Origin: Herbidospora sakaeratensis
GTDB taxonomy: Bacteria > Actinomycetota > Actinomycetes > Streptosporangiales > Streptosporangiaceae
Assembly: GCF_001570525.1 (NCBI RefSeq)
Contig: NZ_BBXC01000012.1
Location: 112,696 to 176,695, forward strand
DNA length: 64,000 nt
Direction: 5' to 3'
Shown here: in pieces, positions 16,161-42,564 of the stretch
Position numbering within the stretch: the first letter of the stretch is position 1
Layout of the letters: the number at the start of each line of letters is the position of its first letter
The notes under the pieces: generated by a model
The model's input: the letters and a program-made list of their open reading frames with translations, nothing else
Told to the model about the DNA's origin: nothing
Databases searched by the model: none
Made by a program: the position numbers and the translations under genes

Positions 16161-16643
16161 ATGCACGACGCGGAGGGGTTCCGGAAATTCGTGGCCGTAC
16201 GCGGCCGCGCGTTGTCGCGTGCCGCCTATCTGCTCACCGGCGACCACGAGAAGGCCGAGGACCTCATGCAGGAGACCCTGGCCAAGGCGGCCGCCAAGTG
16301 GCGGCGGATCTCGGCCGCGGACGACCCCGAGGCCTACCTGAAGACGATGATGATCAACCAGTTACGGACCTGGCACCGCCCCCGCAGCCTGGTCTTCTTC
16401 CCGACCTCCCAGCCCCCGGAAACGGGCGCGCCCCCGCCCGACACCGAGCTGAAGATCGTGCTCCGGCACGCCCTGACCACCCTCACGGCCAAACAGCGCA
16501 TCGTCCTCTACCTGCGCTTCTACGAAGACCTGCCCGAGGCGCAGATCGCCGCCCGGCTCGGCTGCTCGGTCGGCACGGTCAAACGGCACACGCACGACGC
16601 CCTGAAGCGGCTGCGGAAGGCAGGCATCCATGAACCCGCGTGA
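16161..16643 (+). CDS. SigE-family (ECF) RNA polymerase sigma factor
   Basis: A 160-residue ECF sigma factor of the actinobacterial SigE family. Region 2 is LSRAAYLLTGDHEKAEDLMQETLAKAAAKWRRI and region 4 is LTAKQRIVLYLRFYEDLPEAQIAARLGCSVGTVKRHTHDALKRLR, a full helix-turn-helix. It recruits RNA polymerase to specific promoters, target set unknown. It overlaps the following gene by 14 bp, which is typical of sigma factors coupled to a membrane-anchored regulator. Confidence 0.92.
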   Translation: MHDAEGFRKFVAVRGRALSRAAYLLTGDHEKAEDLMQETLAKAAAKWRRISAADDPEAYLKTMMINQLRTWHRPRSLVFFPTSQPPETGAPPPDTELKIVLRHALTTLTAKQRIVLYLRFYEDLPEAQIAARLGCSVGTVKRHTHDALKRLRKAGIHEPA

Positions 16644-17619
16644 GGCCTATCTCGACCTGGCCGACGACGCCCGCGACTACGGCGACCCCGACCGCGCCAT
16701 CGAGACCGCCGGACGCCGCAGGGCGGCCCGCTGGAGCGCCGTGGCCGTCGCGGTCACCGTGCTCGTCCTGTTCACGTGGCTGCGCCCCGAGCCGGAACCG
16801 GCGCCCGTCCTCCGCGAGCCGCCGCCGCATGCCGGCGCGCGGGCCCACTCCCTCTACTCCGTCTGCCGCACCGGCTGCCCGACCGTGTTGCGGCTGACCG
16901 ACGGCCGCGAGACCGAGATCGTGTCCGGGGTCGAGACGGTCAACCCGCCCGGCAACCACACCATCTCGCCGGACGGCCGCTGGCTCGGCCTTCCCGACGA
17001 CGGGGGCGGCTACCGGCTGAACGACCTGCTCGGCGGCCCCGACCTCCAACTGCCCGCCGAACTGGGCGGCGTCTACGGCCCATGGGTGTGGGCGGCCGAC
17101 TCCAGCCGGATCATCCTGGCCAACCACCGGGACGGCGACGTCTTCCACTACCTCGACGTCGACCTGCGCACCGGCCAGGTGACCCGTCCGGTCGTCCCGG
17201 AGGGAACCGAGATCGTCGGCCTGACCGGCGGCGGTGAGCTGATCCTCCAGCCGCCCCAGAAGGTCACCGACCAGCTCACCCTGACCGTCGCCGGGCGGCC
17301 GGTCGTCTTCCGCGCCCAGACCGGCCGGTTCGCCGACGACGACCACGGCCTGTGGATCCAGTCGCGGGGCGAGCGGCTCTACCTGCACGAATACGGCGAG
17401 CAGGCCGTCGTCCGGCTGCTCAGCCCCGAGGGGCGGGCCGACGCCTATCTCCGCATTCCGGAGGGCCGCTTCGCGGTGGGCCCGACCGCGACCGGATACG
17501 TCGTGGTCGAGCCCGGAAACCAGGCGCAGCGCCTCTACGAGATCGGCCAGGAGGAGAGGCTCCTCGGCGAGTACCCGCCGGAGGCCGCCGTCGTCATCCC
17601 CGGCCTGGCCCGCCACTAG
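16630..17619 (+). CDS. membrane-anchored protein paired with the SigE sigma factor
   Basis: A 329-residue protein with a short cytoplasmic N-terminus, one membrane segment (about residues 36-51, WSAVAVAVTVLVLFTW), a Pro/Glu-rich linker, and an extracellular part of repeated beta-strands (HTISPDGRWLGLP, WVWAADSSRIILANHRDGDVFHYLDVDLRTGQVT) that looks like a WD40/TolB-type propeller. Start is ATG 16630, inside the sigma gene, so the two are translationally coupled. The pairing suggests a sensor or anti-sigma function, but no classical zinc anti-sigma motif (HxxxCxxC) is visible. The stop overlaps the convergent HAD gene by four bases. Confidence 0.75.
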   Translation: MNPREAYLDLADDARDYGDPDRAIETAGRRRAARWSAVAVAVTVLVLFTWLRPEPEPAPVLREPPPHAGARAHSLYSVCRTGCPTVLRLTDGRETEIVSGVETVNPPGNHTISPDGRWLGLPDDGGGYRLNDLLGGPDLQLPAELGGVYGPWVWAADSSRIILANHRDGDVFHYLDVDLRTGQVTRPVVPEGTEIVGLTGGGELILQPPQKVTDQLTLTVAGRPVVFRAQTGRFADDDHGLWIQSRGERLYLHEYGEQAVVRLLSPEGRADAYLRIPEGRFAVGPTATGYVVVEPGNQAQRLYEIGQEERLLGEYPPEAAVVIPGLARH

Positions 17620-18323: not shown

Positions 18324-18455
18324 TTACGGCAGGGCGTCGATCACGGCGTCGCGCCAGTCGTAGTTCATCCAGTCGTAGTTCGCCCACATGCCGCCGGTGA
18401 CGTCGGCGAGCTCGGTGTCGGCCAGCTCCTGGGCGGTGCTCTCGAAGTCGTTCAT
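18324..18455 (-). CDS. double-glycine leader precursor peptide 1 (NYDW-repeat)
   Basis: A 43-residue peptide. The leader is MNDFESTAQELADTELADVT followed by GG (residues 21-22), a typical cleavage site for C39-peptidase exporters. The predicted 21-residue core starts MWANYDWMNYDWRDAV and ends ALP: it carries two NYDW tetrads, three Trp and no Cys, Ser or Thr, so it is not a lanthipeptide. The SD-like AAAGAGGGGG precedes the ATG at 18455, and an upstream in-frame start at 18512 is rejected because it would add residues unlike a leader. It has its own candidate promoter motif (18511-18526). Function is not known; export by the ABC protein at 18992-21151 is inferred from neighbourhood and leader type. 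Confidence 0.88.
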   Translation of the reverse strand: MNDFESTAQELADTELADVTGGMWANYDWMNYDWRDAVIDALP

Positions 18456-18477
18456 GACAACCCCCTCTTTCTCGATC

Positions 18478-18490
18478 CGTGAACCTTGCG
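18478..18490 (-). promoter_or_regulatory. conserved 13-bp element upstream of precursor 1
   Basis: The + strand sequence CGTGAACCTTGCG occurs upstream of all three precursor genes (also 18708-18720 and 18977-18989), at 17 to 23 bp from the start codon. Here CCTTG pairs with CAAGG at 18495-18499. Role unknown: leader RNA structure or regulator contact. Confidence 0.6.
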
Positions 18491-18510
18491 AAACCAAGGT
18501 CCCATTGGGC

Positions 18511-18526
18511 ACTTGGGGCTCACTTG
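18511..18526 (-). promoter_or_regulatory. 16-bp motif shared with exporter gene promoter
   Basis: The + strand reads ACTTGGGGCTCACTTG, 15 of 16 identical to ACTTGGGCCTCACTTG at 21173-21188 upstream of the exporter. The two sites lie ahead of the two presumed transcription units of the peptide cluster, so a common regulator is plausible. Confidence 0.5.
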
Positions 18527-18554
18527 AGCGCTTCTACAAGCCGCTCCAAGCCGG

Positions 18555-18686
18555 TTACGGCAGGGCCATCATGACCGCGTCGCGCCAGTCGTAGTTCATC
18601 CAGTCGTAGTTCGCCCACATGCCACCGGTGACCTCGGCGAGCTCCTCGTCGCCGAGGTGCTGTGCGGTGGACTCGAAGTCGTTCAT
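18555..18686 (-). CDS. double-glycine leader precursor peptide 2 (NYDW-repeat)
   Basis: A 43-residue paralogue of precursor 1. Leader MNDFESTAQHLGDEELAEVT, GG at residues 21-22, then a core that starts MWANYDWMNYDWRDAV and ends MALP. The first 16 core residues are identical to those of precursor 1, with MM replacing ID near the end. DNA identity to precursor 1 over the core is also very high, showing a recent duplication. An SD-like AAGGG precedes ATG 18686. It lies between hairpins and the conserved element at 18708-18720. Product is probably cleaved after GG and exported. Confidence 0.88.
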   Translation of the reverse strand: MNDFESTAQHLGDEELAEVTGGMWANYDWMNYDWRDAVMMALP

Positions 18687-18707
18687 GCTGAACCCTTCCG
18701 TTCGCTT

Positions 18708-18720
18708 CGTGAACCTTGCG
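18708..18720 (-). promoter_or_regulatory. conserved 13-bp element upstream of precursor 2
   Basis: Exact second copy of CGTGAACCTTGCG (+ strand), 21 bp upstream of the start codon of precursor 2. Confidence 0.6.
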
Positions 18721-18784
18721 CCTCGAAGAGTTCCAGCACCCGCTGGTACGCGGCTCGGCCGCGAATCCCAGCCGGATACAAGTC

Positions 18785-18812
18785 GGGGCCGTCCCCGCAA
18801 GAGGACGGCCCC
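18785..18812 (-). terminator. hairpin between precursors 3 and 2
   Basis: Perfect 10-bp stem GGGGCCGTCC (18785-18794) / GGACGGCCCC (18803-18812), loop of eight, starting 16 bases after the stop of precursor 3. It has no T-run, so it may act as a partial terminator or an mRNA-stabilising structure. Confidence 0.65.
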
Positions 18813-18828
18813 GCGTTTCACCCCGTGG

Positions 18829-18960
18829 TTACGGCAGCGCCTCGATCACCGCGTCGCGCCAGTCGTAGTTCGCCCAGTCGTAGTTCCAGGGCAGACCGCC
18901 GGTGACCTCGGCGAGCTCGGTCTCGGTGAGCTCGTTCGCGGTGTTCTCGAAGTTGTTCAT
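18829..18960 (-). CDS. double-glycine leader precursor peptide 3 (NYDW-repeat)
   Basis: A 43-residue peptide found by reading the minus strand upstream of precursor 2. Leader MNNFENTANELTETELAEVT, GG at 21-22, core LPWNYDWANYDWRDAVIE then ALP. It keeps both NYDW tetrads and the RDAV...ALP tail but differs in its first three core residues and in Ala for Met between the repeats, so it is the most diverged copy. SD-like AAGGGGG precedes ATG 18960. It starts 31 bases after the exporter's stop codon, with a strong hairpin between them, so it is likely co-transcribed with the exporter. Confidence 0.88.
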   Translation of the reverse strand: MNNFENTANELTETELAEVTGGLPWNYDWANYDWRDAVIEALP

Positions 18961-18976
18961 CACAACCCCCTTCGTT

Positions 18977-18989
18977 CGTGAACCTTGCG
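18977..18989 (-). promoter_or_regulatory. conserved 13-bp element upstream of precursor 3
   Basis: Third exact copy of CGTGAACCTTGCG (+ strand). Part of it forms the arm of the hairpin at 18983-19006. Confidence 0.6.
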
Positions 18990-19006
18990 ACTCAAGAGTC
19001 GCAAGG
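18983..19006 (-). terminator. hairpin over the exporter stop codon
   Basis: Perfect 11-bp stem CCTTGCGACTC (18983-18993) / GAGTCGCAAGG (18996-19006) with a two-base loop. It contains the TGA of the exporter gene and lies upstream of precursor 3. No T-run; possible attenuator or processing site that sets precursor to exporter ratio. Confidence 0.65.
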
Positions 19007-21151
19007 CACGCTTGGTGGGATCTTGGTACTTCTTGGGGTGTTTTCTTGGTGGGCCACCAGCCGGGCGTAGTGGCCGTCGAGTTCCACCAGCTCGTCGTGG
19101 GTGCCCTGCTCCACCACGCGGCCGTCGTCGATGACGGCGATCAGGTCGGCGTCGCGGACGGTGCTCAGCCGGTGGGCGATCACGATGCGGGTCTGGGTCA
19201 GCGCCGCGAGGTTGCGCTCGATGGCGGCCTCGGTGACGGTGTCGAGGTGGCTGGTGGCCTCGTCGAACAGCAGCACCTTGGGCCGCCCGAGCACCGCCCT
19301 GGCCAGCGCCAGCCGTTGCCGCTGCCCACCCGACAGGCCCATGCCCTCCGACAGGTTGGTCTCGTAGCCCATGGGCATCGCCATGATCTCGTCGTGGACG
19401 CAGGCCGTCTTCGCCGCCCGCACGATCTCCTGCGGCGTGGCCCCCGGCCGGCCCAGGGCGATGTTCTCCCTGATGGTGCCGGTGAACAGGTGGGCCTCCT
19501 GGGTGACCACCCCGAAGTGCCGCCGCAGGGACGAGCGCTGGAGGGCCTCCATCCGCACGCCGTCGTAGCTGACGGCGCCGAAGGTGGGTTCGTACAGGCC
19601 GACCATGACGCGGGCGAGGGTGCTCTTGCCCGAGCCGCTGCCGCCGACCAGGGCGATCTTCTGGCCGCGGCCGATGGCGAGCGAGACCTTCCACAGGATC
19701 CACGGGGCGTTGGGGGCGTGCCGGAAGGAGACGTCGCGCAGCTCGATCCGGCCGCGCAGGTGGCCCACCTGGACCTCGCCGTAGGGCTCGGGGGTGAACT
19801 CCAGGATGTCGGCCAGCCGTTCGAGGTGGGTGCCCGCCTCCTGGAGGATGCGGACCGTGCCGACCAGCGACAGGATCGGCGTCAGCGCCGCGCCCGCCAG
19901 GGCGACCAGCGTCAGCGTCTGGCCGAGGGAACGGCCGTTCAGCACCTCCCAGCCGCCGGTCCAGAGCAGCGCCGCCGGGGCGGCCAGCCGCATGCTGTCG
20001 AGGACCGAGGTGACCAGGTTCTCCATCCGGCCCTGCCGCGCGTCGGCCTTCAGCTGGTCGAGGAACAGCTGCGACCAGCGGCTCAGCGCGGCGTCCTCGA
20101 TGGCCCCGGCCTTGAGGATCTCCACCCCCTTGATGGCCTCCATGAGCTGCCCCTGCGTCTGGACCTGCGCCGACAACGCCGCCAGGTTCAGGTCGGCCCG
20201 CCGCCGCCGGGTGACCAGCAGCAGCACGGCCTGCACCGCCGCCAGCGCGAGCAGGCAGAGCCCCAGCGGCGCCGACGACAGCAGCACGATCGTCACGTAG
20301 CCGACCGCGAGCGGCCCGTCGAGCAGGGCCGTGGTGATCGGCCCCGAGATGAGCTGCCGCAACCGGCCCACGCTGGCGCTGCGCTGGGCCAGGTCTCCCG
20401 AGCCCCGGGTGGCGAAGTAGCGGTAGGGGAGGCGGAACAGGTGGGCGACCACCTCCGACGACAGCAGCCGGTCGGCCCGCAGCCGCAGCTTGAGCACGGT
20501 CGCCGCGCGCAGGTAGGTGAGCCCGAGGTGGACGACGCCCGCCACCGCCAGCGCCACCCCCAGTGAGACCAGCAGTGCGGAGTCCCTGGTCGGGAGCACC
20601 CCGTCGACCAGGATGCCCGAGAACGTCTGCACCCCCAGCCCGAGGACCTGCAGCAGCAGCGACGCCAGCAGGATGCGCGCGATGAGGCCCTTCTGCAACG
20701 CGGTCCGGGCGAGCGGGCCGACCCAGGTCCGGCGGACCCGTTTCCGGCGCTCGAACGTCTCGCCGGGCTCGAAGGTGAGCAGCACCCCCGAGTAGCCCTC
20801 GGCGAACTCCTCCCGGGTCAGCCGGCGGCGGCCGATCGCCGGGTCGACGACGTCGACGTGGCGGGCGTTCTGCCGTTCGACGACCACGAAGTGGTTGCGC
20901 CGCCAGTGGGCCACCGCCGGGAGGGGCGCGTCGGTGACGGTCTCGGCCTTGTACGCGGTCGCGGTGAGCCCGTAGCCGCGCGCCGCCTTGACGATCGCCA
21001 GCGCCGAGAGGCCGTCGCGGCCGACCCCGCACTGCTCGGACACCTCGCGGACCCCGGTGTGGCGGCCGTGGTGGCTCAGCACCATGGCCAGGCAGGCGGC
21101 CCCGCATTCGGCCAGGCCCGACTGGAGCCGGACCGGTACTCTCACGTTCAC
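18992..21151 (-). CDS. peptidase-containing ABC exporter (PCAT) with C39 domain
   Basis: A 719-residue bacteriocin-type exporter. Residues 1-130 form a C39 cysteine peptidase: oxyanion Gln10, catalytic Cys16 in ECGAACLAM, His87 in NHFVVV and Asp103 in VVDPAIG are all present. Residues about 150-440 form the membrane domain, and 465-719 the ATPase (Walker A GGSGSGKST at 503-511, LSGGQ at 606-610, Walker B VLLFDEATSHLD). Such proteins cut double-glycine leaders and export the core peptide. It precedes three genes for double-glycine peptides on the same strand, which are its obvious substrates. The start is the GTG at 21151 (alternative GTG 21145); no clear SD. No HlyD-type accessory gene or modifying enzyme adjoins it. 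Confidence 0.92.
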   Translation of the reverse strand: MNVRVPVRLQSGLAECGAACLAMVLSHHGRHTGVREVSEQCGVGRDGLSALAIVKAARGYGLTATAYKAETVTDAPLPAVAHWRRNHFVVVERQNARHVDVVDPAIGRRRLTREEFAEGYSGVLLTFEPGETFERRKRVRRTWVGPLARTALQKGLIARILLASLLLQVLGLGVQTFSGILVDGVLPTRDSALLVSLGVALAVAGVVHLGLTYLRAATVLKLRLRADRLLSSEVVAHLFRLPYRYFATRGSGDLAQRSASVGRLRQLISGPITTALLDGPLAVGYVTIVLLSSAPLGLCLLALAAVQAVLLLVTRRRRADLNLAALSAQVQTQGQLMEAIKGVEILKAGAIEDAALSRWSQLFLDQLKADARQGRMENLVTSVLDSMRLAAPAALLWTGGWEVLNGRSLGQTLTLVALAGAALTPILSLVGTVRILQEAGTHLERLADILEFTPEPYGEVQVGHLRGRIELRDVSFRHAPNAPWILWKVSLAIGRGQKIALVGGSGSGKSTLARVMVGLYEPTFGAVSYDGVRMEALQRSSLRRHFGVVTQEAHLFTGTIRENIALGRPGATPQEIVRAAKTACVHDEIMAMPMGYETNLSEGMGLSGGQRQRLALARAVLGRPKVLLFDEATSHLDTVTEAAIERNLAALTQTRIVIAHRLSTVRDADLIAVIDDGRVVEQGTHDELVELDGHYARLVAHQENTPRSTKIPPSVPCDS

Positions 21152-21172
21152 TTCGGGATCGTGGCAGCGCCG

Positions 21173-21188
21173 ACTTGGGCCTCACTTG
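21173..21188 (-). promoter_or_regulatory. 16-bp motif upstream of exporter gene
   Basis: ACTTGGGCCTCACTTG (+ strand), near-identical to the motif upstream of precursor 1 at 18511-18526. It lies 22 bases upstream of the exporter GTG, in promoter position. Confidence 0.5.
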
Positions 21189-21829: not shown

Positions 21830-23077
21830 TTACGCGGCCAACCGGAACGACTGGGCGGCCGTGCCGTTGCAGGCGTACTGGACCAGCTGCACCGAGTTGG
21901 CGGTCGAGGCGGCCGGGACGTCCAGGCACTTGCCGCTGTTGCGGTTGACGAAGTGGTAGTAGCCGCCGCCCTCGGCGACCGGGAGCCACTGCTGGTTGTT
22001 GCCGCCGCCGTAGGTCCAGGTCTGGATGGGGGCGTTGTCGGCGACGGAGACGTTGGTCACGTCGAGGGCCTGGGCCGGGTTGCCCTGGCCGGAGATCCGG
22101 TAGTAGCCGCCGCTGGTCGGGGTGAACTGGTAGCGCTGGGCGGCGGTGCCGTTGCAGGTGTACTGCTGGATCGCGGTGCCGCTGACCGTGCCGGCCGCGC
22201 GGGCGTCGACGCACTTGGCGCTGTTCTCGTTCACGACCGTGTACCAGGTCGTGGGGGAGATGGTGTCGGTGGGCGGCGGGGTGGTGCCGCCCTCGCCGGC
22301 CAGCCAGCGGATGCCCTGGATGAGCCACTGGTTCTGCTGGGCGCTGGCGAAGGTCGAGGAGGTGCGGGTGTTGGTGGAGTAGTTCATGCCGTTGTGGCCG
22401 AAGTTGGTGTAGAGCATCTTGTACTTCGTGTTCGTCCACATGATCGGGTAGAACCCGCTGCGCCACTGCTGGTTGGGGTCGGTGCCGACCGGGAAGCTGC
22501 CGGCGTCGATCGAGGCCAGGATGCTGATGTCGGGGTTCTGCCGCAGGTCGCGGCTCCACGAGTACCACTCGCTGACCGACGACTGGATGGTGGCGGGCAA
22601 CCCGGCGGTCGACGGGTGGTTACGGTTCTCGATCCTCAGCGTCTCGGCCGTCGGGAACCAGGTGTTGGTGGCGAACGCCCCCGACCCGAGGAAGGTGTTG
22701 TAGTACCAGCTCCAGGAGTTGGGGTCGGTGGTGAAGGCGCTGACGTGGAAGCCCAGCCAGGCCCCGCCGTTGTTCATGTAGTTCTGGAACGCCTGCCGCT
22801 GGCTGGCCGGCGGGGCGTCGTCGAGGAACATGACGACCTTGTACTGCGAGATCGTCGAGGAGCTCAGCCGCGACCAGTCGGTCGTCGCCTCCCAGGTGAA
22901 CCCGTTCTGGGCCGCCGCCGAGGGGAACCACTCCTTGGCGTCCTTGGTGAAGTCGATGTGGGCGGCGTCCCACGTGCCGTTGTAGAAGGCGAGCACCTTG
23001 AATGGGGCGGCCTGCGCGGGCGGGGCGAGCACGGCGATCAGGACGAGGCCGAATAAGGCGGCGAACAGACGTTTCAC
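21830..23077 (-). CDS. secreted ThuA-domain protein with ricin B-lectin module
   Basis: A 415-residue secreted protein. After a Sec signal peptide (MKRLFAALFGLVLIAVLAPPAQA) comes a ThuA/glutamine-amidotransferase-like domain (residues about 25-265: VLAFYNGTWDAAHIDF, VVMFLDDAPPASQRQAFQNYMNNGGAWLGFHVSAF, YTNFGHN), then a Pro/Thr linker, then a ricin-type beta-trefoil (about 285-415) with three QxW-type repeats (IQQYTCNGTAAQRYQF, IQTWTYGGGNNQQWLP, LVQYACNGTAAQSFRL). It probably binds and acts on plant or microbial polysaccharides. A 17-bp inverted repeat at 23108-23124 sits in its promoter region and may be a sugar-responsive operator. Confidence 0.9.
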   Translation of the reverse strand: MKRLFAALFGLVLIAVLAPPAQAAPFKVLAFYNGTWDAAHIDFTKDAKEWFPSAAAQNGFTWEATTDWSRLSSSTISQYKVVMFLDDAPPASQRQAFQNYMNNGGAWLGFHVSAFTTDPNSWSWYYNTFLGSGAFATNTWFPTAETLRIENRNHPSTAGLPATIQSSVSEWYSWSRDLRQNPDISILASIDAGSFPVGTDPNQQWRSGFYPIMWTNTKYKMLYTNFGHNGMNYSTNTRTSSTFASAQQNQWLIQGIRWLAGEGGTTPPPTDTISPTTWYTVVNENSAKCVDARAAGTVSGTAIQQYTCNGTAAQRYQFTPTSGGYYRISGQGNPAQALDVTNVSVADNAPIQTWTYGGGNNQQWLPVAEGGGYYHFVNRNSGKCLDVPAASTANSVQLVQYACNGTAAQSFRLAA

Positions 23078-23210: not shown

Positions 23211-24425
23211 ATGACGACCGCAGCACAGACCCCGACGGAACTCCGCCGCCTGCTGCCCCGCGACCTGGTGGAGCGCGGCGGCTGCCCGTTCGACCCACCC
23301 GCCGGGCTGACCGCGCGCCGCGGCCAGGCCCCGGTCCAGCCGCTCCGGCTCGCCAACGGCGCCGAGGCGTGGCTGGTCACCGGCCTCGAAGAGGCCCGCG
23401 CCGTGCTGGCCGACACCCGCTTCAGCTCCGACCGCGTCCGCCACCCCGACGCCGCCTCCGGCGCGGAGCCGCGCCAGGTCGAGACCCGCGACGACGGCAT
23501 GTTCGTGTTCATGGACCCGCCCGAGCACACCACGCTCCGCAAGCTGCTCACCGGCCAGTTCACCGTCCGGCGGATGCGCGCCCTGGAGGAGCGCGTCCGG
23601 GAGATCGCGGTCGGCCACATCGAGGCGATGAAGGCCGCCGGGACCGAGGCCGACCTGGTGCCCGCCTACGCGCTGCCGATCCCGTCGCTGGTCATCTGCG
23701 AGCTGCTCGGCGTCGACTACGCCGACCGCGACCGGTTCCAGCGCAACACCGCCGTCGCCCTCGACTCCGCCGCCTCCACCGACGAGCGGGCACGGGCGGG
23801 GCTGGAGCTCTACACGTTCATGGGGGAGCTGATCGCCGCCAAGCGGGCCGCGCCGGGCGACGACCTCGTGTCGGGCCTGCTCGACCTGCCCGACAACCAG
23901 CTCGTCGACATCGCGCTGGTGCTGCTCGGCGCGGGCCACGAGACCACCGCCAACATGCTCGCGCTGGGCACGTTCGCGCTGCTGGAGAACCCCGGCGAGC
24001 TGGCGCGGCTGCGCGCCGAGCCCGAGCTGCTCGACACCGCGATCGAGGAGCTGCTGCGGTACCTGTCGATCATCCAGATGGGGGTCAGCCGGGTCGCGAC
24101 CGAAGACCTGACAATAGGTGACGTGACCATCCCCGCCGGCGCCACCGTGATCATCGCCACGCCCGAGGCCAACCGTGACCCGGCCCACTGGGACCAGCCC
24201 GACCGCCTCGACGTGAGCCGCCCCCGCGTCTCCCACCTGGCCTTCGGCCACGGCGTCCACCAGTGCCTCGGCCAGCAGCTGGCCCGGGTGGAGATGAAGG
24301 TCGGCCTGGGCGAGCTGATCACGCGGCTGCCCGGCCTGCGCCTGGCCGTGCCGGCCGACGAGGTGCCGCTGCGTGCGGAGATGCTCGTCTACGGCGTGCA
24401 CTCCCTGCCGGTGACCTGGTCATGA
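23211..24425 (+). CDS. cytochrome P450
   Basis: A 404-residue bacterial class I P450. The heme Cys is C352 in FGHGVHQCLG, the I-helix oxygen-activation motif is AGHETT (241-246), the K-helix ExxR is in EELLR (280-283) and the substrate-region PPEHTTLRKLL is typical of CYP105/107-like enzymes. It takes electrons from the ferredoxin encoded two genes downstream. The start ATG 23211 follows a weak purine tract; the gene ends in an ATGA overlap with the TetR gene. Substrate unknown: xenobiotic or natural product oxidation are both possible. Confidence 0.94.
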   Translation: MTTAAQTPTELRRLLPRDLVERGGCPFDPPAGLTARRGQAPVQPLRLANGAEAWLVTGLEEARAVLADTRFSSDRVRHPDAASGAEPRQVETRDDGMFVFMDPPEHTTLRKLLTGQFTVRRMRALEERVREIAVGHIEAMKAAGTEADLVPAYALPIPSLVICELLGVDYADRDRFQRNTAVALDSAASTDERARAGLELYTFMGELIAAKRAAPGDDLVSGLLDLPDNQLVDIALVLLGAGHETTANMLALGTFALLENPGELARLRAEPELLDTAIEELLRYLSIIQMGVSRVATEDLTIGDVTIPAGATVIIATPEANRDPAHWDQPDRLDVSRPRVSHLAFGHGVHQCLGQQLARVEMKVGLGELITRLPGLRLAVPADEVPLRAEMLVYGVHSLPVTWS

Positions 24426-39304: not shown

Positions 39305-39453
39305 GATTGGTCCCTCCTTGGGACTGCACGCCCACGACCGTCGCGGGCGCCGCCCCAGGCTGCGGCGACCACCGTGAGCACACCGTTAAGGCCCAGCTAC
39401 GCGTACTTTTACGCATGGACCGCCGGGACGGCCGGACGTACGCTCCAGCTGTC

Positions 39454-42400
39454 ATGGGGGACCAACTCACACTTCTGTTGCTCGGCCCTCCGTACCTGGC
39501 GATCGGGGAGACGCCTGTCGCGGTCCGGTCGGCCAAGAGCCGGGCACTGCTCTGTTACCTGGCCGCCGCGCCAGGCCCGAGGCCGAGAGCCGAACTCGCG
39601 GGGTTGTTATGGGGTGAACGCCCCGACGCGCATGCCCGCGGCAGCCTCCGGCTGGCACTGTCGGAGTTGCGCAAGGAGGTCGGCGGCTGGCTCGACATCA
39701 CCCGCGAGCACGTGGCCTTCCGCGCCGACCCGGCCTGCTACGTCGACCACGACAAACTGGCCCAAGCCACCACCATCGGCGAAGCCCTGCCCCTGTGGCG
39801 CGGCGAGTTCTTAGACGGCGTCTCTTTCATCGACGCCCCGGCCTTCACCGGGTGGCTCACCGCCGAACGCCTGCGGGTCCGCGCCCTTTTCCGAGACCTT
39901 CTTGTACGTCAGGCGGGCCCCGCCCACGAGATCGTCAGACTGGCCAGACTGCTGAGCGAGCTGGACCAGTACGACGAGGAAGTACACCGCCTCCTCATCT
40001 CCGCGCTGGCGGAGACGGGCAACCGCGCCGCCGCCCTGCTCGCCTACACGGACCTGCGCGACCGCCTGTCCGCCGACCTGGGCGTGGAGCCCTCCGCCGA
40101 GACCCGCGCCGTCCGCGAGACCCTGGGCCCCCAGCGAAAGGTCGCCGCCCCGCCCATCCCCAGCACGCCGCTCGTGGGACGGAAAGCCGAAGTAGACCAG
40201 GTGGCAGCGCTACTGAAACGGGAACGGATCGTCACGCTGCTGGGCCCGGGAGGGGTGGGCAAGACCCGCCTGGCCCTCGCCGCCGCGGCCCGCGTACCGG
40301 GCGCGGCGTTCGTGACCTTCGCCGGCGTCGGCCCGGAAGCGGCGGTCACCACGGTGGCCCGGCGGCTGGGAATGGACCTGTCGTCACCGCGTCCCGCCAG
40401 GGAGATCCTGTTCGAAACCCTCGCCGACCGATGCCTCCTGCTGGTGCTGGACAACCTTGAGCACCTGCCGGACTTCGACCTGGTGATCGGCGAACTCCTG
40501 GCTGCCTGTCCCGACGTGCGCGTCCTGGCCACCAGCAGACGCCGCCTGACCCTGCCGACCCCCACCGTGGTGGTCGAGGGCCTGACCGCCCCCGCGGCCG
40601 AAGAGCTCTTCGCCGTCAGAGCACGCGCCGTGCAGCCGACTTTCGACCCTGGACGCGACTCCGCGCTGGTAGCCGGAATCTGCGCCGCCACCCGAGGATT
40701 GCCACTGGCGATAGAACTGGCGGCCAGCCTGCTGCGTGCCCTGTCCTGCGCCGACCTGGCCGACCATCTCGACGCCGGCCTGCTGGGCGCCGACTGCCCC
40801 GCCCCCCGACCACGGCACGCCACCATGCGCCGCGTGTTCGAGACGTCCTGGACGCTGCTCACCGAGGAAGCCCGCCGCGTGTTGCCGATCCTGTCGGTCT
40901 TCGGCGGCGGCTTCACCCTGGAGGCCGCACTGGACGTCGCCGAGACCACCCCCGAGGTGCTGGTCCACCTGGTCGACCACAGCATGATCACCTTCCAGCC
41001 ACCGGCCCGCTACCTTATACACCCCCTCATCCAGGCGTTCGCAGCCCAGCACCTGAAAGCCGAGCCCCCCGCGCGCCTGCGTCACGCACACCACTTCACC
41101 ACCCTGCTCGACGCCCACGCCCAAGGCCTCCACGACGCGACCGACGAGCAGACCCCCCTCCTGTTGGGCGCAGAGCTGGACAACATCCGCCTGGCCTGGA
41201 CCCACGCCCCCGACCCCGCCTTCCTCGACCTCTACTGGACGCTCTGCCTGCGGCTCGGCCTGTACGAGGAGTCGGCGGCGACAGTGGAGGACAACCTGGA
41301 ACCGTTGACCCCAGAAGCGCGAGCCCGCCGGCTGCGCATGGCAGCGGTCAGCTACTACCAGCTGGCCAAGGAACGCCGCGCCCTGCGCCTGGCCGAGGAG
41401 GCACTGGAAGCACTGGGGCGGCCACTGCCGTCGGGGTGGCGGCGAGCGGTCGTACAGAGAATCGGGCAGTTGTGCTCACCCACGCGACGGGACCCGCGCG
41501 AGGCCGAAGCGGCGCAGGCCCTGTCGATGATCGCCATGTTCGCCTACTACCGGCAGGACCTCCCCACAATGGTGTCGGCGACGCTGCTGCAGCTCAACGC
41601 CGTGGACCGGGCGGGCGTCCCAGAGCTACGAGCGGAGGCCTACGCGAACGTCGCCACCGCCGTGCGAACCGCCGGCCGCTCGCACCTGGCCGGCCGCTAC
41701 GCGAAACGAGCCGACGCCGCGCTGGCCAAGCTCCCCCTTGCCCACGTCAGCGAGGCGGCGAACCGGGCACGGCTCGCACGCGGCATCGACCAGCTGGCGT
41801 GCGGGGCGTTGGAAGCGGCGTGGCGTTCGTTCACGGAAGCCCGGGCGCGGACCCTGGAACCGAGGCTGGCGGAGGTCTGCACGGGCCTGCTCGCGGAGAC
41901 CTCGGTGTGGCGAGGCGAGTTCGGCCGGGCCGCGGAGCTGTTCGTGGTGACGGGCGAACTGTCCGCCCGCCGGGTGGGCGGCGACGACATCGGCCGCTAC
42001 TGGTGCCTGACGGGGCAGGCGGAGGCGCTGCTGCGCATGGACGGGGTGCCGACCGGGCGGATCCGGGAGGTGCTCACGGCCGCGCAGGCCGCAACGGATC
42101 GACGCCGGGCGCTTGAGCAGGCGTTCGGGCTACGGAACGGGCCGATCGTCGAGGTGATCCAGCGGATGCGGTTGCTGACGGGGTTCGCCCGGACTGACCT
42201 GCGTGATCGACGGCCCGAGTGTGCTGCGGAGGCTGTGCCGGAGATTGTGGGGTTGGCGGGGAAGCTGCCTTCGGCGCAGCCGGGCATGCTGGAGTGCTGG
42301 TCGGGGTTGGCCGAGTTGTTGTGGGAGCTGCGCTGGGCTGATCCTGTCGTGGTGCGGACGGTGCTTCGGGGGATGCGCGGTTATGTGGGGCGTTACCCGG

Positions 42401-42564
42401 GTGCGGCGGCGCGGCTGGGGTGGGGGCAAGTGCTCTTACGGGGTACGGCGGGTATGGCCGTGCGGGAGACTCGCCGGGAGGCGATGCGGGCGGCGGATCG
42501 GCTGGGGGTCGCCTACGACATTCGCCGAGCTGCGGAGGCGGCCGGCGGGGTGGTGTCTACGTAA
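39454..42564 (+). CDS. BTAD/NB-ARC transcriptional regulator (AfsR/SARP-like)
   Basis: A large regulator of about 1036 residues. The N-terminal DNA-binding winged helix begins LTLLLLGPPYLAIGETPVAVRSAKSRALLCYLAAAPG and is followed by the bacterial transcriptional activation domain (ADPACYVDHDKL...LLISALAETGNRAAALLAYTDLRDRLSADLGVEPSAETRAV). Next come an NB-ARC ATPase (Walker A GPGGVGKTRLALA near residue 264; LLLVLDNLEHL Walker B) and a long TPR-like helical tail. AfsR/LuxR-large-type regulators control secondary metabolism or stress genes in actinomycetes. ATG 39454 directly precedes the DNA-binding domain; an ATG at 39415 is an alternative. Confidence 0.9.
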   Translation: MGDQLTLLLLGPPYLAIGETPVAVRSAKSRALLCYLAAAPGPRPRAELAGLLWGERPDAHARGSLRLALSELRKEVGGWLDITREHVAFRADPACYVDHDKLAQATTIGEALPLWRGEFLDGVSFIDAPAFTGWLTAERLRVRALFRDLLVRQAGPAHEIVRLARLLSELDQYDEEVHRLLISALAETGNRAAALLAYTDLRDRLSADLGVEPSAETRAVRETLGPQRKVAAPPIPSTPLVGRKAEVDQVAALLKRERIVTLLGPGGVGKTRLALAAAARVPGAAFVTFAGVGPEAAVTTVARRLGMDLSSPRPAREILFETLADRCLLLVLDNLEHLPDFDLVIGELLAACPDVRVLATSRRRLTLPTPTVVVEGLTAPAAEELFAVRARAVQPTFDPGRDSALVAGICAATRGLPLAIELAASLLRALSCADLADHLDAGLLGADCPAPRPRHATMRRVFETSWTLLTEEARRVLPILSVFGGGFTLEAALDVAETTPEVLVHLVDHSMITFQPPARYLIHPLIQAFAAQHLKAEPPARLRHAHHFTTLLDAHAQGLHDATDEQTPLLLGAELDNIRLAWTHAPDPAFLDLYWTLCLRLGLYEESAATVEDNLEPLTPEARARRLRMAAVSYYQLAKERRALRLAEEALEALGRPLPSGWRRAVVQRIGQLCSPTRRDPREAEAAQALSMIAMFAYYRQDLPTMVSATLLQLNAVDRAGVPELRAEAYANVATAVRTAGRSHLAGRYAKRADAALAKLPLAHVSEAANRARLARGIDQLACGALEAAWRSFTEARARTLEPRLAEVCTGLLAETSVWRGEFGRAAELFVVTGELSARRVGGDDIGRYWCLTGQAEALLRMDGVPTGRIREVLTAAQAATDRRRALEQAFGLRNGPIVEVIQRMRLLTGFARTDLRDRRPECAAEAVPEIVGLAGKLPSAQPGMLECWSGLAELLWELRWADPVVVRTVLRGMRGYVGRYPGAAARLGWGQVLLRGTAGMAVRETRREAMRAADRLGVAYDIRRAAEAAGGVVST

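What the first reader, a model, noticed from the sequence alone, without database searches (positions are those of the whole stretch)
18324..21151. Three NYDW-repeat double-glycine peptides with one C39 exporter: possible undescribed peptide system
Three 43-residue genes, the shortest easy to miss, share a leader ending in (D/E)VTGG and a 21-residue core with two NYDW tetrads and an RDAV..ALP tail. The cores lack Cys, Ser and Thr, so they are not lanthipeptides, and no modifying enzyme lies beside them. A complete C39-peptidase ABC exporter precedes them. I do not recall a described family with this core. Candidates: an aromatic-rich unmodified bacteriocin, a signalling peptide, or a substrate of a distant modifying enzyme; the P450 at 23211-24425 is near enough to consider as a Trp/Tyr cross-linking enzyme but its own TetR/ferredoxin operon argues against a dedicated link.
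Basis: partly seen in the sequence, partly recalled or inferred. Interest (0 to 1): 0.86.

Follow-up and report, generated by a model that had tools for sequence, protein, structure and literature searches.

The report
Exported NYDW peptides, one shared promoter
A soil bacterium carries three tiny genes for aromatic secreted peptides next to the pump that should cut and export them, under an antibiotic-pathway-type promoter; relatives carry the same peptides, but what they do is not known.

Summary
Three 43-aa ORFs follow a C39-peptidase ABC exporter on the minus strand of a Herbidospora-like genome. Leaders match the C39 consensus L(-12)xxxE(-8)L(-7)..GG, and the exporter keeps the LahT catalytic residues.

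The family is in 16 of 341 family genomes (4 genera), plus one distant relative in a fifth. The exporter is adjacent at 11 of 17 main-type loci. The pattern shared even with the distant relative is YxWxxYxWxDxV, not NYDW.

New: 38 of 42 upstream regions (27 of 31 peptides, 11 of 11 exporters) carry CAAG repeats at an 11-bp period with an extended -10 at fixed distance, as described for SARP promoters. In seven Herbidospora genomes the exact pattern has 32 hits (reversed control: 1 in 13 genomes): 24 before exporters or family peptides, 7 before a Cys-rich DUF5685 gene (7 of 7 genomes), 1 before a crystallin-like gene.

The P450 link is not supported. The exporter clade is sister to mostly graspetide-linked exporters, but no ATP-grasp gene adjoins, and the window cores lack Ser/Thr/Lys.

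Best reading: SARP-controlled, C39-processed secreted peptides; activity open. New variant of a known kind; interest 0.62.

The parts
18992..21151 (-). C39-peptidase ABC exporter, 719 aa, GTG start
   Evidence: Pfam Peptidase_C39 1.1e-33, ABC_tran 8.7e-31, ABC_membrane 8.5e-23; Gln10/Cys16/His87/Asp103 align with LahT Gln21/Cys27/His101/Asp117
18829..18960 (-). precursor peptide gene 3 (first after the exporter), core LPWNYDWANYDWRDAVIEALP
18555..18686 (-). precursor peptide gene 2, core MWANYDWMNYDWRDAVMMALP; no CAAG pair upstream
18324..18455 (-). precursor peptide gene 1, core MWANYDWMNYDWRDAVIDALP
21158..21188 (-). SARP-type box with extended -10 before the exporter; the hexamer ends 6 nt before the GTG start, so the transcript may be leaderless
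   Evidence: exact pattern; 3 hits in the window, 0 in 100 shuffles; same element at 11 of 11 exporters
18995..19025 (-). SARP-type box before peptide gene 3, lying within the 3' end of the exporter gene
18496..18526 (-). SARP-type box before peptide gene 1
39307..42564 (+). large SARP-type regulator gene (BTAD plus AAA), 18 kb from the exporter; only a candidate regulator, one of 33 BTAD matches in the genome
   Evidence: BTAD 3.6e-19; 33 matches; no link to the peptides shown

Best explanation
This is a secreted-peptide system under a SARP-family activator. The activator (not identified) binds 11-bp-spaced CAAG repeats and brings polymerase to an extended -10. That switches on the exporter, probably from a leaderless transcript, two of the three peptide genes directly, and, in Herbidospora, a DUF5685 gene elsewhere in the genome. 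The C39 domain cuts each 43-aa precursor after GG and exports an acidic, aromatic peptide of 21 residues; up to three variants are released together. Shown by sequence: gene anatomy, leader consensus, complete catalytic residues, family spread, shared promoter. Inferred: binding by a SARP, cleavage, export. Role, by judgement: most likely a specialised-metabolite peptide for competition (about 45%), next a signalling or developmental peptide (about 30%). It may be unmodified, or altered by an enzyme encoded elsewhere.
For: Leader L11/E15/L16/V19 at -12/-8/-7/-4 and G21G22 match the consensus and pockets given in PMC6363468 (passages). C39 catalytic residues complete. Family in 16 of 341 genomes, exporter beside 11 of 17 main-type loci. 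Promoter in 38 of 42 upstream regions, TG at the fixed place in 37 of 38, A2/T6 of the -10 in 38 of 38, also at stand-alone loci. Published SARP targets have repeats at 11 bp, the 3' one 8 bp from the -10 (PMC10936776, passages), and PimR uses CGGCAAG with 4-bp spacers (PMC5930380, passages). Two weak genome hits begin 15 and 14 bp after the stops of large SARP genes.
Against: No SARP gene is tied to the peptides. Peptide gene 2 has no such box. No immunity gene or receptor is conserved beside them. In Microbispora and Nonomuraea the peptide stands without a complete exporter beside it, and one exporter is decayed. In the main type the core varies less than the leader, unlike what I would expect of an arms-race toxin; in the second type it does not vary less.
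Confidence: 0.62

Rival explanations
1. The cores are substrates of a Tyr/Trp cross-linking enzyme encoded elsewhere (P450 or radical-SAM), giving a cross-linked RiPP; the Y-x-W pairs are the link sites.
For: Y-x-W-x-x-Y-x-W spacing survives into the distant G301 peptide. A biarylitide paper describes P450s that bind MxYxW peptides and a Tyr-Trp cross-link (PMC13417212, passages).
Against: No such gene is conserved beside the peptides; the P450 cluster is at 4 of 25 loci, all Herbidospora. One member has W in place of the second Tyr. Genome-wide P450 and radical-SAM genes were not surveyed.
Confidence: 0.18
2. A signalling or developmental peptide: the secreted core is recognised by a receptor and tells kin about growth stage.
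For: Core more constant than leader in the main type (3.42 against 6.87 amino-acid-changing codon differences per pair over 21 and 19 codons); stand-alone copies that keep the promoter; a LuxR-type regulator gene has a weak, partly matching box.
Against: No receptor or kinase is conserved beside the peptides within 4 kb; three near-equal variants in one genome; the LuxR-type site lacks the TG and has E about 0.17; the second type shows no lower core variation.
Confidence: 0.3
3. A graspetide: an ATP-grasp enzyme acting in trans joins Asp side chains to nucleophiles in the core.
For: The exporter clade is sister to 14 exporters of which 12 lie within 2 kb of an ATP-grasp maturase. Leaders give sub-threshold matches to the ATP-grasp target model TIGR04497. 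One Nonomuraea peptide lies 2.8 kb from an ATP-grasp gene.
Against: The window cores have no Ser, Thr or Lys. Of the 16 genomes, four (G001, G002, G005, G138) have only weak hits of 90-98 bits and two (G008, G011) none at E up to 1e-20.
Confidence: 0.04
4. The peptide genes are remnants without function.
For: Frameshift in one genome (L053), decayed exporter and no ATG at the usual place in another (L054), exporter absent beside several.
Against: All 7 genomes of the window's genus keep intact copies and the exporter; the promoter is kept over 5 genera, G301 included.
Confidence: 0.04

Closest known systems
Double-glycine bacteriocins and pheromones exported by C39/PCAT transporters (solved relatives: LahT domain, PCAT1, ComA)
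   Same: GG leader with the L-xxx-E-L consensus; C39 ABC exporter next to the precursors; no modifying gene conserved beside them
   Different: Core unlike those of the models searched; acidic and aromatic; no immunity gene seen; SARP-type promoter in an actinomycete
Actinobacterial graspetide loci (ATP-grasp TIGR04187, TIGR04500, C39 exporter)
   Same: Sister exporter clade; GG leaders; 6 of 14 such exporter loci also hold a CAAG-N7-CAAG pair
   Different: No ATP-grasp or TIGR04500 gene beside the window peptides; no Ser, Thr or Lys in the window cores
P450-cross-linked RiPPs (biarylitides and kin)
   Same: Aromatic-x-aromatic motif
   Different: GG leader and C39 exporter; 21-residue core; no P450 in the conserved neighbourhood
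SARP-controlled promoters (AfsR, PimR, SanG, PolR targets)
   Same: Direct repeats at 11 bp containing CAAG, close to a weak -10
   Different: Targets are short peptide genes and their exporter; the activator is unknown and not adjacent

Membership tests
Double-glycine (C39-exported) peptides | Leader ending in GG with the L(-12)-E(-8)-L(-7) consensus | tested here: met
Double-glycine (C39-exported) peptides | Exporter with a complete C39 active site beside the precursors | tested here: met
   window; adjacent at 11 of 17 main-type loci
Class II bacteriocin | Antimicrobial activity | not testable with these tools
   needs assay
Class II bacteriocin | Adjacent immunity gene | tested here: inconclusive
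   within 4 kb only the exporter, an ADH and a TetR cluster recur across genera; ORFs under 80 aa were not clustered
Graspetide | ATP-grasp maturase beside the precursor | tested here: not met
   none among the conserved neighbours; TIGR04187 genome-wide in 19 genomes
Graspetide | Ser/Thr/Lys partners for Asp/Glu in the core | tested here: not met
   absent from the three window cores
Lanthipeptide | Cys plus Ser/Thr in the core | tested here: not met
   absent from the three window cores
P450-cross-linked RiPP | Dedicated P450 travelling with the precursor | tested here: not met
   cluster at 4 of 25 loci, one genus
P450-cross-linked RiPP | Cross-link in the product | not testable with these tools
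   needs mass spectrometry
SARP regulon | Direct repeats at 11 bp, the 3' one 8 bp from the -10 | tested here: met
   the 8-bp gap holds if the heptamer is read CCAAGTG, and is 10 in the PimR register
SARP regulon | A SARP protein that binds the box | tested here: inconclusive
   33 BTAD matches in the genome, none tied to the peptides; two weak boxes directly follow large SARP genes

The most novel reading that the evidence does not exclude
A new class of actinobacterial secreted peptide defined by YxWxxYxWxDxV cores: sister to, or descended from, a graspetide-type system without its maturases, scattered over the genome but bound into one regulon by a SARP operator, and completed by a trans-acting partner, for which the co-regulated Cys-rich DUF5685 protein is the candidate.
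Probability: 0.2. Interest if true: 0.82.

Novelty: new variant of a known kind. Interest (0 to 1): 0.62.

Why it matters
It gives a compact, testable peptide system in little-studied actinomycetes: exact cleavage sites, predicted masses, a promoter pattern that finds its targets with few stray hits, and one uncharacterised gene (DUF5685) tied to it in 7 of 7 genomes. If SARP control of stand-alone ribosomal peptide genes is confirmed, the promoter can help to find short peptide genes that gene callers miss. The sister relation to graspetide-linked exporters offers a case in which a maturation pathway was gained or lost around a shared kind of exporter.

Tried and rejected
P450 as a dedicated cross-linker: at 4 of 25 loci, one genus. 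ATP-grasp in trans: not universal, no nucleophile in the window cores. Lanthipeptide: no Cys/Ser/Thr in the window cores. A W-x-N/W-x-D triceptide idea (recalled, from no call) is broken in the second type (W-A-E) and in G301; not pursued, and radical-SAM genes were not searched. 'NYDW' in papers: 32 papers, the 20 listed are unrelated. AlphaFold of the precursor: mean pLDDT 60, pTM 0.27, no usable fold. Plasmid collection: no match. Class-wide sample: beyond known members one weak hit, E 0.009, not followed. In the last family scan 63 of 341 genomes pass E 0.3; beyond the 16 genomes and G301 I judged the hits by query range and frame length only and did not count them. First ORF patterns were too narrow or wrongly spaced and were replaced. 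Consensus scan for sigma-70 promoters and terminators: 0 of each. The LuxR-type site (E 0.16-0.17, model positions 2-31, equal score in 6 of 7 genomes, sequence looked at in 3) lacks the TG and stays a lead. DUF5685: no solved relative (best E 0.2); not folded, because its loci are not among those the folding tool admits. Two further weak sites and the 8493 pair in the window were not followed.
Full report
WHAT IS THERE. The window lies in an 8.6-Mb genome (G000) whose same-genus relatives match contigs named Herbidospora. On the minus strand an exporter gene (21151-18992) is followed by three 43-codon genes (18960-18829, 18686-18555, 18455-18324). The three peptides agree in 29 of 43 columns.

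PROCESSING. The leader has L11, E15 and L16 (-12, -8, -7 from the cut) and V19 at -4 or its Ile equivalent in the second type; these are the positions named for C39 enzymes in PMC6363468 (passages read). The exporter's C39 domain matches the LahT protease domain 6mpz at E 1.1e-27. Counting along the printed alignment, Gln10, Cys16, His87 and Asp103 stand opposite Gln21, Cys27, His101 and Asp117. Cleavage after GG is therefore well founded but not observed. The three cores have net side-chain charges of -3, -2 and -3.

SPREAD. With a 14-member profile, 18 of 341 genomes of the family match at E up to 0.01. Two of these are not NYDW peptides: G077, where the match is a precursor beside an ATP-grasp gene, and G301, a distant relative. 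That leaves 16 genomes in 4 genera: Herbidospora 7, Acrocarpospora 4, Microbispora 2, Nonomuraea 3 (names by coordinate match, carried over by genus code). In the order 17 of 345 genomes match, all of this family; in a class-wide sample 5 of 394 do, 4 of them already known and one weak. Six of the 7 Herbidospora genomes have a further divergent copy at another locus (core HAADYNWAEYDWRDAVMCALP in G000) with no exporter of this kind in the stretch fetched; G004 has none at that threshold. One Nonomuraea copy has a single NYDW unit (L056), one Acrocarpospora copy is frameshifted (L053), and in one Microbispora the exporter beside the peptide is decayed and the peptide lacks an ATG at the usual place (L054).

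WHAT IS CONSTANT. Over 18 members the invariant core columns are W29, D33, W34, R35, D36, A37, V38, L42 and P43, with Y27, Y32 and A41 nearly so. Adding the distant G301 peptide (core YYWACYHWEDFVPGAPGY, with a promoter-model hit at E 0.067 just upstream) leaves W29, W34, D36, V38 and P43 invariant, and Y27 and Y32 nearly so. So the constant pattern is Y-x-W-x-x-Y-x-W-x-D-x-V; one member has W for the second Tyr. In the main type, amino-acid-changing codon differences per pair are 3.42 over 21 core codons and 6.87 over 19 leader codons (21 sequences); in the second type 1.47 and 0.93 (6 sequences). That used 27 of 31 sequences; four were dropped for length or frame. The sequences are related, so these are descriptions, not tests.

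NEIGHBOURS. I clustered predicted neighbours (ORFs of at least 80 aa, blastp) of the window and 24 loci and counted clusters near the 17 main-type loci. Within 4 kb three clusters recur across genera: the exporter (11 loci, Herbidospora and Acrocarpospora), a zinc-type ADH (2 loci) and a TetR regulator (3 loci). Within 10 kb five more recur in 2-6 loci; those looked at are an NmrA-like, an alpha/beta-hydrolase, an SDR and a protein mannosyltransferase cluster, and one has no Pfam match. None but the exporter is a constant companion. The P450 at 23211-24425 is at 4 of the 25 loci, all Herbidospora. In the exporter tree the 11 NYDW-linked exporters form one clade (97/99). With the five outgroup rows outside, its sister is a clade of 14 others (98/96); the program warns of long branches between outgroup and ingroup. 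Of these 14, 12 lie within 2 kb of an ATP-grasp maturase (coordinates; family names checked for a part of them).

PROMOTER. Upstream of 31 peptide genes and 11 adjacent exporters, 38 of 42 regions hold CAAG-N7-CAAG (27 of 31 and 11 of 11). The four without it are peptide gene 2 of the window, L029_9750, L027_9764 and L056_9813. In the 38, TG stands at one fixed place in 37, and the hexamer after it has A at 2 and T at 6 in all 38. The CAAG pair was the rule by which the 38 were picked; the TG and the -10 letters were not. Many regions are close relatives and not independent. At the window exporter the hexamer ends 6 nt before the start codon, which suggests a leaderless transcript. Papers describe SARP targets as direct repeats at 11 or 22 bp, the 3' one 8 bp from the -10 (PMC10936776, passages), and CGGCAAG heptamers with 4-bp spacers for PimR (PMC5930380, passages). 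Read as CCAAGTG heptamers, the boxes fit both the period and the gap; in the PimR register the gap is 10.

REGULON. The exact pattern CAAGN7CAAGN7TGNNANNNT has 3 hits in the window and none in 100 shuffles. In 13 genomes it has 32 hits, all in the 7 Herbidospora; the reversed control has 1. By place and sequence the 32 are 7 exporters, 12 main-type peptides, 5 second-type peptides, 7 sites before a DUF5685 gene (one in each genome) and 1 before a secreted crystallin-like gene (G000 only). The first three groups helped to define the pattern; the DUF5685 sites did not. Pfam was run on the G000 copy of DUF5685 only; the other six were recognised by their translations, three of them aligned with it at 82-89% identity. 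Before DUF5685 the box block is 92% constant against 61-63% in the bases upstream; the stretch downstream is constant too (88%, then 71%), so the box is not the only conserved element. 'DUF5685' is in one paper of the library, on Clostridium difficile proteins (listing only). A profile search of G000 gave 15 hits at E up to 10; two weak ones (E 0.29 and 0.52) begin 15 and 14 bp after the stops of large SARP genes, which supports the view that this repeat type is a SARP operator here. Of the 14 related exporter loci, 6 hold a CAAG-N7-CAAG pair in the stretch examined and 8 do not.

READING. The evidence supports a SARP-controlled, C39-processed secreted peptide family. What the peptides do is not decided. 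SARP control and several variants per genome favour a competition peptide; the constant core of the main type, the stand-alone copies and the lack of a conserved immunity gene favour a signal or surface role. The kept Y-x-W spacing leaves cross-linking open, but no enzyme travels with the peptide.

NOVELTY. No Pfam or NCBIfam model reaches its cut-off on the window peptides, apart from the generic leader model on one. Paper searches that might have named the family did not (listings only). Two papers that mention Herbidospora speak, in the passages seen, of a lanthipeptide cluster and of radical-SAM clusters. In the passages seen, the graspetide survey PMC8939145 does not name Streptosporangiaceae. 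The library holds open-licence papers only, so absence from print is not shown.

Noticed in passing
L116:4278-5348 (G000:C7); also L177, L178, L180, L182, L200, L204: DUF5685 protein with an extremely Cys-rich C-terminal tail, preceded by the same SARP-type box in 7 of 7 Herbidospora genomes.
   Followed up: partly
L115/L181 (G000:C7:615370): Secreted beta/gamma-crystallin or I36-inhibitor-like gene with the exact box; seen in G000 only.
   Followed up: partly
L118:2221-2269 (G000:C8): Triple 11-bp repeat before a LuxR-type response regulator gene; equal-score model hits in 6 of 7 Herbidospora genomes, but no TG and E about 0.17.
   Followed up: partly
L117:3079 and L120:2291 (G000): Weak CAAG-repeat sites 15 and 14 bp after the stop codons of large SARP genes, before an MBL-fold-like and an MMPL-like ORF (names by eye).
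   Followed up: partly
L054:9748-10822: Microbispora locus where the exporter beside the peptide survives only as a broken C-terminal part with a stop, while the peptide frame is kept.
   Followed up: no
L053:9923-10051: Acrocarpospora copy with a frameshift inside the second NYDW unit; assembly error not excluded.
   Followed up: no
L087, L098, L058: Graspetide-type loci with ATP-grasp, TIGR04500 maturation protein, C39 exporter and GG precursors.
   Followed up: partly
window 21830-23077 (-): ThuA-like domain fused to a ricin-type lectin domain, next to a DJ-1/PfpI gene upstream of the exporter.
   Followed up: no
window 16161-17619 (+): A sigma-70-family factor gene overlapping the start of a 329-aa ORF that matches no Pfam or NCBIfam model.
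   Followed up: no
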